Assembly (NCBI GenBank): GCA_017436785.1
Contig: JAFSCK010000107.1
Location: forward strand, 1-39,479
From: Oscillospiraceae bacterium
GTDB lineage: Bacteria > Bacillota > Clostridia > Oscillospirales > Oscillospiraceae
Direction: 5' to 3'
DNA length: 39,479 nt
How positions within the stretch are numbered: the first letter of the stretch is position 1; each line of letters starts with the position of its first letter. The notes under the pieces were generated by a model that saw only the letters and a program-made list of their open reading frames with translations, was not told the origin of the DNA and ran no database searches. Both the position numbers and the translations under genes were made by a program. This document shows, piece by piece, positions 38,189 through 39,479 of the stretch.

Positions 38189-38902
38189 CTATAGCTGGGA
38201 GAAAATACTGCCCAGACCTTCGTGGAAGACCAGATCGGCTTGGTGATCGTAGGGAGTAGCGTCACGGTTGATGAGGACCAGACGGTTGCCACGGTAATAG
38301 TTGATAAGACCTGCTGCCGGGTATACCGTCAAGCTGGTGCCTGCCACGATCAGCAGGTCGGCGTTATAGATGGCCCGAACGGATTTTTCGATGGTATTCT
38401 GGTCAAGGCTTTCCTCATAGAGCACCACATCCGGCTTCACCGTGCCGCCGCAGTCACATTTGGGCACGCCGGGAGCATTCTTGACAAACTCAGCACTGTG
38501 GAATTTTCCGCATCGGGTGCAGTAATTGCGCAGAACGCTTCCGTGAAGCTCGTAGACCTTTTTGCTGCCTGCTTTCTGGTGAAGACCGTCGATGTTCTGG
38601 GTAACAACAGCAGAGAGCTTTCCCTGCTGCTCCCATTTTGCCAGCACCTGATGGGTGATGTTGGGTTCAAAGCCAAGGGGCAGCATTTTCTCCCGGTAGA
38701 ATCGGAAAAAGTATTCCGGCTTTCGCTCATAAAAGGTATGGCTGATGATGGTCTCCGGCGGGTAGTCAAATTTCTGGCTGTACAGGCCGTCGGTACTGCG
38801 AAAATCCGGGATTCCCGATTCTGTGCTGACACCTGCGCCGCCGAAAAAGACAATACGGCTGCTTTCTGCTACCCAGCGCTTTAAAATCTCGATTTTGTCC
38901 AT
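38189..38902 (-). CDS. cobB: NAD-dependent protein deacylase, sirtuin family
   Basis: The 237-residue protein has GAGVSTESGIPDFR (NAD site, residues 22-35), TQNIDGLHQKAG, catalytic H120 in ELHGSV and a zinc ribbon C128/C131/C149/C151. AGTSLTVYPAAGL and VLINRD are further blocks. It removes acetyl groups from lysines using NAD. It belongs to the Sir2-class bacterial sirtuins (CobB/SrtN type). AAGGAGGG precedes the ATG. It stands alone. Confidence 0.94.
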   Translation of the reverse strand: MDKIEILKRWVAESSRIVFFGGAGVSTESGIPDFRSTDGLYSQKFDYPPETIISHTFYERKPEYFFRFYREKMLPLGFEPNITHQVLAKWEQQGKLSAVVTQNIDGLHQKAGSKKVYELHGSVLRNYCTRCGKFHSAEFVKNAPGVPKCDCGGTVKPDVVLYEESLDQNTIEKSVRAIYNADLLIVAGTSLTVYPAAGLINYYRGNRLVLINRDATPYDHQADLVFHEGLGSIFSQL

Positions 38903-38971
38903 AGAACACCCTCCTTTAGGATATCATAGCGCAATTTTCCCTGTGACGCAATCAAAAAAACTCAAAAGGGT

Positions 38972-39000
38972 TTGACAAGAGGAAGAAAAAAAGCTATACT
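38972..39000 (+). promoter_or_regulatory. Promoter of the antitoxin RNA
   Basis: TTGACA and TATACT are separated by exactly 17 bp, with no ORF following on this strand. It drives the antisense RNA starting near 39007. Confidence 0.85.
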
Positions 39001-39006
39001 GTATAT

Positions 39007-39099
39007 AGAAAAAGGTGCTGCCGGTTTCACGGTCAGCCCTTAGGTTTCAACGAATGTGATCGCCGAACTTGTCAGGGTGCCGGCGGTCACTTCTTTTTT
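39007..39099 (+). ncRNA. Antisense antitoxin RNA
   Basis: Predicted from the promoter at 38972-39000 and an intrinsic terminator: GTGATCGCCG (39056-39065) pairs with CGGCGGTCAC (39081-39090), one G-U pair, followed by TTCTTTTTT (39091-39099). The RNA of about 90 nt has a second hairpin at 39017-39038. It is complementary to the 3' end and stop region of the toxin mRNA on the minus strand. Ends are inferred, not measured. Confidence 0.75.
39009..39039 (-). terminator. Terminator of the toxin mRNA
   Basis: On the minus strand GGCTGACCG-TGAAA-CCGGCAGC forms a hairpin and ACC-TTTTT follows. The same DNA forms the 5' hairpin of the antisense RNA on the other strand. Confidence 0.65.
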
Positions 39100-39170
39100 G
39101 CCTGCTGAAACAGGCTGATAATTCCAACGATCAGAATGCCGATTTGAATCAGGGCTTCATATGTAACCAT
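39087..39170 (-). CDS. Holin-like type I toxin peptide (27 residues)
   Basis: The peptide begins MVTYEALIQIGILIVGII and ends in FQQAKKK: a short polar start, one membrane helix (about 6-20) and a basic tail. This is the pattern of the putative holin-like toxin family (Hol-Tox) of type I toxin-antitoxin systems. An AAGGAGGGC ribosome binding site lies 8 bases before the ATG. It is too short for ordinary gene calling. Excess toxin would depolarise the membrane. The stop codon overlaps the terminator arm of the antisense RNA. Confidence 0.85.
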   Translation of the reverse strand: MVTYEALIQIGILIVGIISLFQQAKKK

Positions 39171-39178
39171 CAGATATC

Positions 39179-39222
39179 GCCCTCCTTTCCGAAAAAACGG
39201 AGGGCATCAGAAGCTGCCCTCC
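39179..39222 (-). promoter_or_regulatory. Two-way switch over the toxin ribosome binding site
   Basis: On the minus strand GGAGGGC (39222-39216) can pair with GCCCTCC (39205-39199), followed by GTTTTTT, giving a terminator. The same GCCCTCC can instead pair with the identical GGAGGGC (39185-39179) that is the toxin ribosome binding site. The two pairings exclude each other. Confidence 0.75.
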
Positions 39223-39228
39223 TGAGCG

Positions 39229-39258
39229 AAGGGCTGACCGCTGCGTTCCGGCAGCACC
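39229..39258 (-). repeat. Inverted copy of the antisense RNA 5' hairpin in the toxin leader
   Basis: On the minus strand it reads GGTGCTGCCGG-AACGCAG-CGGTCAGCCCTT; the plus strand at 39014-39041 reads GGTGCTGCCGG-TTTCA-CGGTCAGCCCTT. The toxin mRNA therefore carries a sequence near its 5' end that is complementary to its own 3' end (11 + 12 bp). Confidence 0.8.
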
Positions 39259-39272
39259 GGAGCAATGTGCTC

Positions 39273-39301
39273 CATAAAAATGGTAATCCTTTCTCTGTAA
39301 A
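39273..39301 (-). promoter_or_regulatory. Probable promoter of the toxin mRNA
   Basis: On the minus strand TTTACA and TTTATG are 17 bp apart, about 100 bases before the toxin ATG. The -10 is weak. Confidence 0.5.
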
Positions 39302-39345
39302 AAAGCTACCCAAAAAGAGTTAAAAACAGCCGGAATCGATTGAAG

Positions 39346-39479
39346 TGACCCCAAAAAGTTAGACAAATATTTCTAACTCAAATTGTTCAAGCAACCAAAA
39401 GGGCTTGTTGTCTGTGCAAAGCAGGCGGCAAGCCCTTTAACTTTGCCTTGCTGCGTCTGTTGTTATAGTAATCCAGGTA
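39346..39479 (-). mobile_element. End of an IS3-family insertion sequence
   Basis: The terminal sequence TGACCCCAAAAAGTTAGACA (39346-39365) is an IS3-type inverted-repeat end (TG...CA). It is followed inward by the end of a DDE transposase gene. The rest of the element lies outside the window. Confidence 0.85.
39387..39479 (-). CDS. IS3-family transposase, C-terminal end (cut by the window)
   Basis: The last 30 residues start YLDYYNNRRSKAKLKGLPPA and continue to a stop at 39387. YYN..R...K..L.G..P is the hallmark end of the IS3-family OrfB integrase core. The upstream part is beyond the window edge. Whether the copy is complete cannot be seen. Confidence 0.9.
   Translation of the reverse strand, partial: YLDYYNNRRSKAKLKGLPPALHRQQALLVA

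What the first reader, a model, noticed from the sequence alone, without database searches (positions are those of the whole stretch)
38972..39301. A complete type I toxin-antitoxin locus readable base by base
A 27-residue holin-like toxin (minus, 39087-39170) with a perfect ribosome binding site faces a convergent antisense RNA on the plus strand. That RNA has a 17-bp-spaced promoter (TTGACA/TATACT) and its own terminator (39056-39099), whose right arm overlaps the toxin stop codon. The arrangement is like TxpA/RatA or BsrG/SR4, but hidden from gene callers by its size.
Basis: partly seen in the sequence, partly recalled or inferred. Interest (0 to 1): 0.72.

Follow-up and report, generated by a model that had tools for sequence, protein, structure and literature searches.

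The report
Toxin-antitoxin locus with self-mimicking RNAs
A tiny gene for a probable membrane-active peptide, kept in check by a small opposing RNA, belongs to an RNA-control framework that recurs in many gut bacteria with several unlike peptides, and in which the toxin message appears to carry a copy of the start of its own antidote.

Summary
In detail: peptide (39087-39170, -), ribosome site, antisense promoter (38972-39000) and antisense terminator overlapping the stop codon are present, and they recur in five more loci of this genome and over 100 elsewhere, mostly Clostridia plus some Selenomonas types. The peptide is under purifying selection; the terminator covaries. [quoted passage not shown] transcription and toxicity are untested.

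(1) The toxin leader carries an inverted copy of the antisense RNA's 5' box; among 69 loci with an exact box the copies agree at three variable positions in 67, 66 and 65 (ancestry not corrected), so the toxin mRNA can clamp its leader onto its 3' tail, the stretch the antitoxin binds. (2) The framework serves unlike peptides: 29 of 113 match Hol_Tox, and a model trained on Hol_Tox-type loci finds the RNA in 35 of 35 contigs with other peptide types. (3) The usual Lys-Lys-Lys-stop ending is the complement of the antitoxin's U-tract. No Rfam model reached its threshold; my paper searches found no description. New variant of type I TA.

The parts
38972..39000 (+). antitoxin RNA promoter TTGACA-17-TATACT
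   Evidence: same spacing in homologues; used as a pattern
39007..39099 (+). predicted antisense (antitoxin) RNA, about 93 nt
   Evidence: no transcript data
39014..39039 (+). 5' box hairpin of the antitoxin RNA (GGTGCTGCC...CGGTCAGCCC); its complement followed by the complement of the A-run before it (39009-39013) is the likely toxin-mRNA terminator and 3' tail
   Evidence: A-rich stretch before the box in homologues; terminator role inferred by eye
39056..39099 (+). antitoxin terminator; right arm overlaps the toxin stop codon, U-tract is the complement of the Lys codons
   Evidence: covariation
39087..39170 (-). 27-aa hydrophobic Hol_Tox peptide ORF
   Evidence: pN/pS 0.234 in 8 homologues chosen by DNA similarity
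39179..39188 (-). Shine-Dalgarno stretch AAAGGAGGGC
39199..39222 (-). leader hairpin GGAGGGCAGCTTCTGATGCCCTCC; its 3' arm can instead pair with the Shine-Dalgarno stretch
39229..39258 (-). leader copy of the antitoxin 5' box (GGTGCTGCCGG...CGGTCAGCCCTT), inverted relative to 39014-39041
   Evidence: I2 and I4, arms of 12 and 11 nt, 100% complementary
39259..39273 (-). 5'-end stem-loop of the toxin mRNA (GGAGCACATTGCTCC)
39280..39308 (-). proposed toxin promoter TAGCTT-17-TACCAT (weak; two paralogues have TAAAAT as -10)
   Evidence: by eye and the alignment; the automatic scorer did not pick it (best 6 of 12 elsewhere)

Best explanation
A chromosomal type I toxin-antitoxin module. The minus strand makes a message of about 265 nt for a 27-aa single-helix membrane peptide; the plus strand makes an antisense RNA of about 93 nt complementary to the message's last Lys codons, stop codon and whole 3' tail. 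Inferred working: (a) the message folds so that its leader box pairs with its own 3' tail while a leader hairpin arm hides the Shine-Dalgarno stretch, leaving a long-lived, poorly translated mRNA; (b) the antitoxin RNA, whose 5' part has nearly the same sequence as that leader box, competes for the same tail, pairs on through the terminator and stop region, and makes a duplex for RNase III; (c) if antitoxin synthesis stops (loss of the locus, or stress), surviving message is opened or trimmed and the peptide damages the membrane. Shown here from sequence: the parts, their conservation, the covariation of the antitoxin terminator, the agreement of leader and antitoxin boxes, and selection on the peptide. 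Inferred: transcription, competition for the tail, RNase III, toxicity.
For: Peptide in Hol_Tox. Six antisense-RNA loci in this genome, the window's included; 33 of 136 genomes of the genus at E<=1e-5 and 22 of 299 genomes drawn from the phylum at E<=0.001, own genome counted in both. Of 144 such loci with at least 300 nt downstream, 119 have a hydrophobic 18-45-aa ORF with a ribosome site ending at the terminator on the other strand, against 7 of 2000 random windows of the same contigs; 9 of the 25 misses carry a peptide with alternating (beta-like) hydrophobicity that the filter missed. Antitoxin terminator: 7 of 10 pairs change on both sides; whole structure 60 double-change cells against 10.4 in shuffles and at most 30 in slid controls. 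Leader box exact in 66 of 127 leaders against 0.55 expected from shuffles. Box copies agree at three variable positions in 67, 66 and 65 of 69 loci that have an exact leader box. Cognate leader-tail duplex -48.1 against -40.6 kcal/mol non-cognate, better in 111 of 119. Window mRNA fold z -9.62 with the clamp formed and the Shine-Dalgarno stretch paired. pN/pS 0.234 over 28 pairs of 8 homologues found by DNA search, 0.11 over the 6 pairs of four copies of this genome.
Against: No transcript or toxicity data. The window's own toxin promoter is weak, so this copy may be poorly expressed. Shine-Dalgarno hiding is only moderate across loci: mean unpaired probability 0.27 against 0.39 with the upstream part shuffled, lower in 57 of 68; and removing the tail does not open it (0.26 without, 0.33 with the tail), so the folds do not show that the clamp itself blocks translation. 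The cognate leader-tail duplex is in the best tenth in only 63 of 119 cases, and the window's ranks behind 17 of 118 foreign tails. Box agreement and duplex preference are not corrected for shared ancestry. No exact leader box within 100 nt in 61 of 127 leaders. 16 of 144 pattern loci have no ORF by my filters. Seven double-changed pairs are against six when the helices are slid by three columns. Over whole length classes with unlike peptides pN/pS rises to 0.62-0.68.
Confidence: 0.8

Rival explanations
1. A plain RatA-like type I locus: the antitoxin acts only by 3' duplex and RNase III. The leader box is a by-product of an inverted duplication of a promoter region and has no regulatory role.
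For: Both RNAs have a promoter shortly before the box: 9-15 nt in the antitoxin by the search pattern; in 53 of 71 leaders with the exact box a promoter-like site of at least 8 of 12 lies upstream, 30 of these 53 at 6-9 nt (no shuffled control was run). Box agreement could come from gene conversion between inverted copies. Predicted Shine-Dalgarno accessibility does not depend on the tail.
Against: Boxes are kept in loci of unlike peptides while the DNA between them diverges; T/C and A/G exchanges occur in both copies together; a second shared motif, CTTCTT, is in 60 of 127 leaders against 4.6 expected.
Confidence: 0.25
2. The leader-tail clamp is a shield: it occupies the tail so that clamped (old) message escapes the antitoxin and stays as a reservoir, while nascent message is destroyed by the antitoxin.
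For: Leader and antitoxin have the same sense and must compete for one target. A 5'-3' helix that stabilises the toxin message is described for par of pAD1 (PMC7472228, passages).
Against: No kinetic data. The antitoxin terminator region stays free to pair even when the tail is clamped.
Confidence: 0.35
3. The peptide is not a toxin but a small membrane regulator (for example like the competence inhibitor ComI), silenced by an antisense RNA.
For: Weak NCBIfam ComI match (19.5 bits, cut-off 55).
Against: Hol_Tox match above cut-off; the same framework with unlike peptides, multi-copy and tandem occurrence, and presence on viral contigs fit a selfish or defensive module better.
Confidence: 0.1
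4. Decaying remnant: the window copy is a dead paralogue at a contig end beside an insertion element.
For: Weak toxin promoter; an integrase fragment and a likely IS end about 30 bp upstream of the promoter.
Against: ORF, ribosome site, antisense promoter, box pair and terminator are all intact; the four copies of this genome compared show pN 0.068 against pS 0.622.
Confidence: 0.15

Closest known systems
txpA/RatA (Bacillus subtilis skin element)
   Same: Convergent RNAs overlapping at their 3' ends (about 75 nt there, about 90 nt predicted here), small hydrophobic peptide (PMC4147584, passages).
   Different: Toxin 59 aa against 27 aa; no Rfam RatA match in this genome (weak control); a leader copy of the antitoxin's 5' box is not mentioned in the passages read.
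bsrG/SR4 (SPbeta prophage)
   Same: 3' overlap (about 120 nt) and ribosome site partly hidden in a stem; antitoxin acts at a distance (PMC4147584, passages).
   Different: Not compared by sequence: the SPbeta record asked for was not held.
par of pAD1 (Fst, RNA I/RNA II) and the Fst/Ldr family
   Same: Convergent RNAs, repeated boxes, leader stem-loop at the Shine-Dalgarno stretch, a helix that stabilises the 5' end of the toxin message, RNA architecture conserved over many loci (PMC7472228, passages).
   Different: In par the repeats are direct and make the antitoxin complementary to the toxin's start region; here they are inverted, so antitoxin and leader have the same sense and compete for the tail. 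The terminator is not shared. The window peptide matched Hol_Tox and no other Pfam family.
Clostridioides difficile type I modules (CD0956.2-RCd10 and others)
   Same: Convergent RNAs, long overlap, small hydrophobic peptides, many in prophages (PMC6563280, its chapters 3 and 4).
   Different: 34-59-aa toxins there; no sequence comparison was done here.
Pfam Hol_Tox PF16935 (Putative Holin-like Toxin)
   Same: The window peptide is a member by score.
   Different: Pfam covers only the peptide; most peptides found with this RNA framework are not matched (29 of 113 are, at E<=0.01).

Membership tests
Pfam Hol_Tox (PF16935) | profile score over the curated cut-off | tested here: met
   27.2 bits against 23.3, full length
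type I toxin-antitoxin | small hydrophobic peptide ORF with ribosome site, kept by selection | tested here: met
   pN/pS 0.234 in 8 homologues
type I toxin-antitoxin | conserved antisense RNA gene complementary to the toxin message | tested here: met
   (sequence only, no RNA data)
type I toxin-antitoxin | peptide is toxic and the RNA neutralises it | not testable with these tools
   needs expression experiments
TxpA/RatA | RatA RNA family match (Rfam RF01776) | tested here: inconclusive
   no match at E<=10 in the genome, but no control genome passed the cut-off and B. subtilis did not ring
TxpA/RatA | convergent RNAs overlapping at 3' ends | tested here: met
   predicted from coordinates; RNA ends not mapped
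BsrG/SR4 | sequence kinship of toxin and antitoxin | not tested
   record not held
par/Fst | direct repeats giving antitoxin complementarity to the toxin start region | tested here: not met
   boxes are inverted repeats (I2 and I4). Antitoxin 5' part against start region: hardly any cognate preference (73 of 119, p 0.03), though stronger than shuffled antitoxin (93 of 119)
par/Fst | shared bidirectional terminator | tested here: not met
   on the toxin strand the antitoxin terminator hairpin is not followed by a U-run (read)
par/Fst | toxin message with a 5'-end helix and a Shine-Dalgarno stem | tested here: met
   predicted folds only:
any curated Rfam family | match reaching the gathering score of one of 4227 models | tested here: not met
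   only sub-threshold hits at 38850-39479 and in 13 homologous contigs (one of these, Thr_leader 29.3 bits against 55, overlaps the locus of L228)

The most novel reading that the evidence does not exclude
An RNA-defined superfamily of type I toxin-antitoxin modules in Clostridia and Negativicutes in which the regulatory frame (two promoters, a shared 5' box in inverted copies, antitoxin terminator) is the conserved unit and the toxin reading frame is exchangeable, including one array whose neighbouring, near-identical frames hold two different peptides and one class whose peptide looks beta-stranded rather than helical. In it the toxin message carries a cis mimic of its own antitoxin, so antitoxin and leader compete for one 3' target: a built-in switch between destruction and storage of the message.
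Probability: 0.45. Interest if true: 0.78.

Novelty: new variant of a known kind. Interest (0 to 1): 0.6.

Why it matters
Type I toxins are mostly found and classified by peptide similarity, which fails at 20-30 residues. Here the RNA is the better handle: one covariance model finds the control RNA beside peptides of which most match no Pfam family, in lineages for which my paper searches listed no described type I system. If the leader really mimics the antitoxin, the old question of how a type I message avoids both premature translation and immediate destruction becomes testable with point changes that natural covariation already points to. The overlap of Lys-Lys-Lys-stop with the antitoxin's U-tract also offers a simple, testable reason for the charged tails of these peptides.

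Tried and rejected
Rfam searches of the locus and of 13 homologous contigs: nothing reached a gathering score. DNA search of the phage and plasmid collections: no match for the window locus, for L158 or for L067 (phages only). The terminator-like hairpin plus GTTTTTT in the leader (39222-39193) suggested attenuation; the stem recurs but the T-run does not (alignment: several G024 copies lack it), so I treat the T-run as incidental. Antitoxin pairing directly with the ribosome site: stronger than shuffled antitoxin (93 of 119) but with hardly any cognate preference (73 of 119, p 0.03), so left open. The clamp as direct cause of Shine-Dalgarno hiding: not supported by folds with and without the tail. 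RatA model: no match, weak control.

A first pN/pS of 0.157 used 9 sequences chosen partly by a peptide motif, which biases it downwards; it is replaced, where 8 homologues chosen by DNA similarity give 0.234.

Rows dropped: of 166 distinct pattern loci, 21 gave no definable terminator end with my script (11 of them Selenomonas-type or Lys-Ala-Cys-type loci), 145 were kept and 134 remained after a 90% identity cut. I aligned 91 of these 134; the other 43 were left out by hand without a fixed rule. Many rows end at ..ACTT because the script cut them before the U-run, so the last model positions are under-represented. 127 of 166 loci entered the leader analysis, 119 after redundancy removal, 69 with an exact leader box within 120 nt. 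One search used 144 of 155 distinct matches (11 too short).

Papers: PMC6563280 outline with abstract and two chapters; PMC7472228, PMC4147584, PMC9045289 and PMC10903887 passages only; all others only as search listings. 'Not found in print' rests on these searches of an open-access library.

Full report
What was checked. The window is the whole contig C80 of a 3.05-Mb draft genome. The locus lies at its right end, next to a sirtuin gene (38189-38902, -) and genes with ZnuA, ABC transporter and TrmO matches, and about 30 bp before what looks like an insertion-element end: a fragment with an integrase-core match, rve_2, at 39387-39479. The peptide passes the Hol_Tox cut-off.

The rest of the anatomy. 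One search shows two perfect inverted repeats with 223 and 187 nt between the arms: 39014-39024 with 39248-39258, and 39030-39041 with 39229-39240. On the toxin strand one copy sits in the leader, the other in the 3' tail. Because the antisense RNA starts at about 39007, its 5' end has the same sense as the leader copy: GGTGCTGCCGG...CGGTCAGCCCTT in both. The folded toxin message closes with this long 5'-3' helix (z -9.62; 0 of 200 shuffles fold as well), starts with a small stem-loop, and pairs the Shine-Dalgarno stretch with the 3' arm of a leader hairpin. The complement of the antisense 5' hairpin, followed by the complement of its A-run, looks like the toxin's own terminator. When the antisense model is run over the window, its second-best match, though weak (13.2 bits, E 0.16), is the toxin leader on the other strand (39174-39266).

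Relatives. A DNA search of 136 genomes of the genus gave relatives in this genome and six others at E up to 1.2e-4; most of its other matches are chance. An alignment of 17 rows shows antisense promoter, box and terminator kept while the peptide changes. Because the most conserved part was the antisense promoter plus box, I scanned with a pattern of only these. By a rough estimate of my own, not a tool result, less than one chance match is expected in the genome collection.

Is there a toxin each time? Of 155 distinct matches, 144 have at least 300 nt downstream; 119 of these (95 of 118 genome, 23 of 25 viral, and the window) have a short hydrophobic ORF with a ribosome site on the opposite strand ending at the terminator, against 7 of 2000 random windows from the same contigs. 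Nine of the 25 misses carry a peptide of another kind, MRITLHIGAYTVTIIVKRRNR... and one of similar style, with similar leader boxes. The other 16 have no ORF by my filters, the Faecalibacterium locus (L148) among them.

One RNA, unlike peptides. Of 113 distinct peptides, 29 match Hol_Tox at E<=0.01; the only other Pfam matches are three at E about 0.007-0.008. By single linkage 89 of 113 fall into one set and 24 into eight others, such as a Selenomonas type (22 aa ending mostly Ile-Lys-Ala) and a type with Leu-Gly-Tyr near the end. Such short hydrophobic peptides can link or fail to link by chance, so these sets are a guide, not families. To ask whether the RNA is the same, I trained a model on 35 loci of the Hol_Tox-like type and searched 35 contigs with other types (29 outside the main set or of the beta-like kind, 6 inside it): all 35 gave a match at E<=0.01 at the expected site, the weakest at 0.007. 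The 5' part of those matches is guaranteed by the pattern; the terminator part is not. Three further matches in that call lie on the reverse strand of a terminator and are symmetry effects. In one array (G010:C39) three frames with near-identical starts hold two different peptides; another contig has four frames in tandem, one without an ORF by my filters.

Covariation. On 91 aligned antisense RNAs the terminator has 7 of 10 pairs with changes on both sides, and the whole structure 60 double-change cells against 10.4 in shuffles and at most 30 in slid controls; by number of pairs the lead is small (7 against 6 when slid by three columns). The 5' hairpin has no double changes and was partly fixed by the search pattern. 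In the leaders, the exact box is found within 100 nt in 66 of 127 (shuffles 0.55) and CTTCTT in 60 of 127 (shuffles 4.6). At the three variable positions of the box, leader and antisense copies agree in 67, 66 and 65 of 69 loci with an exact leader box. Cognate leader-tail duplexes are 7.6 kcal/mol stronger on average than non-cognate ones and better in 111 of 119; they are in the best tenth in 63 of 119. None of these corrects for ancestry, but the same exchanges occur in both copies in loci of different peptides.

Dual use of bases. 86 of 127 peptides end in Lys-Lys-Lys, and in 59 of 127 the last 12 nt are AAAAAGAAGTAA, the complement of the antisense terminator's arm and U-tract. The charged tail and the terminator are therefore the same base pairs. 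Which of the two is the cause is open.

How it most likely works. See the best explanation. The folds support a hidden ribosome site (less accessible than with shuffled leaders in 57 of 68) but do not show that the clamp causes it, and direct antitoxin pairing with the ribosome site has only weak support. The simplest consistent account is RatA-like destruction through the 3' duplex, plus a leader that competes for the same 3' target.

This copy. The window's toxin promoter, TAGCTT-17-TACCAT, is my reading by eye and is weaker than in two paralogues (TAAAAT); an automatic scan found nothing better than 6 of 12 there. The peptide is nevertheless under purifying selection: pN 0.137, pS 0.583 over 28 pairs of 8 homologues chosen by DNA similarity, and pN 0.068, pS 0.622 over four copies of this genome. 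The genome holds six such loci; redundancy or cross-talk among them is likely but untested.

Known or new. Hol_Tox peptides and type I modules are known, and par of pAD1 already combines repeats, a stabilising 5' helix and a hidden ribosome site (PMC7472228, passages). What differs is that the repeats are inverted, so that the leader mimics the antitoxin, and that the RNA frame serves unlike peptides. No Rfam model reached its gathering score. My paper searches showed no description of it; they cover open-access papers only.

Noticed in passing
39341-39479: End of a likely IS3-type insertion element (integrase-core fragment, rve_2; the IS3 label and the end are read by eye) about 30 bp upstream of the toxin promoter, cut by the contig end.
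   Followed up: partly
39193-39222 (-): Terminator-like hairpin with a T-run inside the toxin leader of this copy; the stem recurs in relatives, the T-run does not. It could attenuate the toxin in this copy.
   Followed up: partly
L268 (G121:C136), L269 (G010:C39), L071 and L072 (G024): Tandem arrays of two to four frames about 350-450 bp apart, with different peptides in neighbouring frames of one array; they look like cassettes.
   Followed up: partly
L092, L097, L121, L171, L177, L179, L182, L194: Peptides with alternating hydrophobicity (MRITLHIGAYTVTIIVKRRNR... in all but L182) under the same RNA frame; the one tested has no Pfam or NCBIfam match. Possibly a different kind of toxin.
   Followed up: partly
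L223:777: A second copy of the antisense box follows directly after the first hairpin, before the toxin gene; whether it has its own promoter was not checked.
   Followed up: no
L199:4258: The start and the conserved end of the toxin frame lie in different frames; probably a decayed copy.
   Followed up: no
L271-L273 (G338): A genome of another family with 12 matches to the antisense model, with a variant box; of the four matches examined one has an ORF by my filters.
   Followed up: partly
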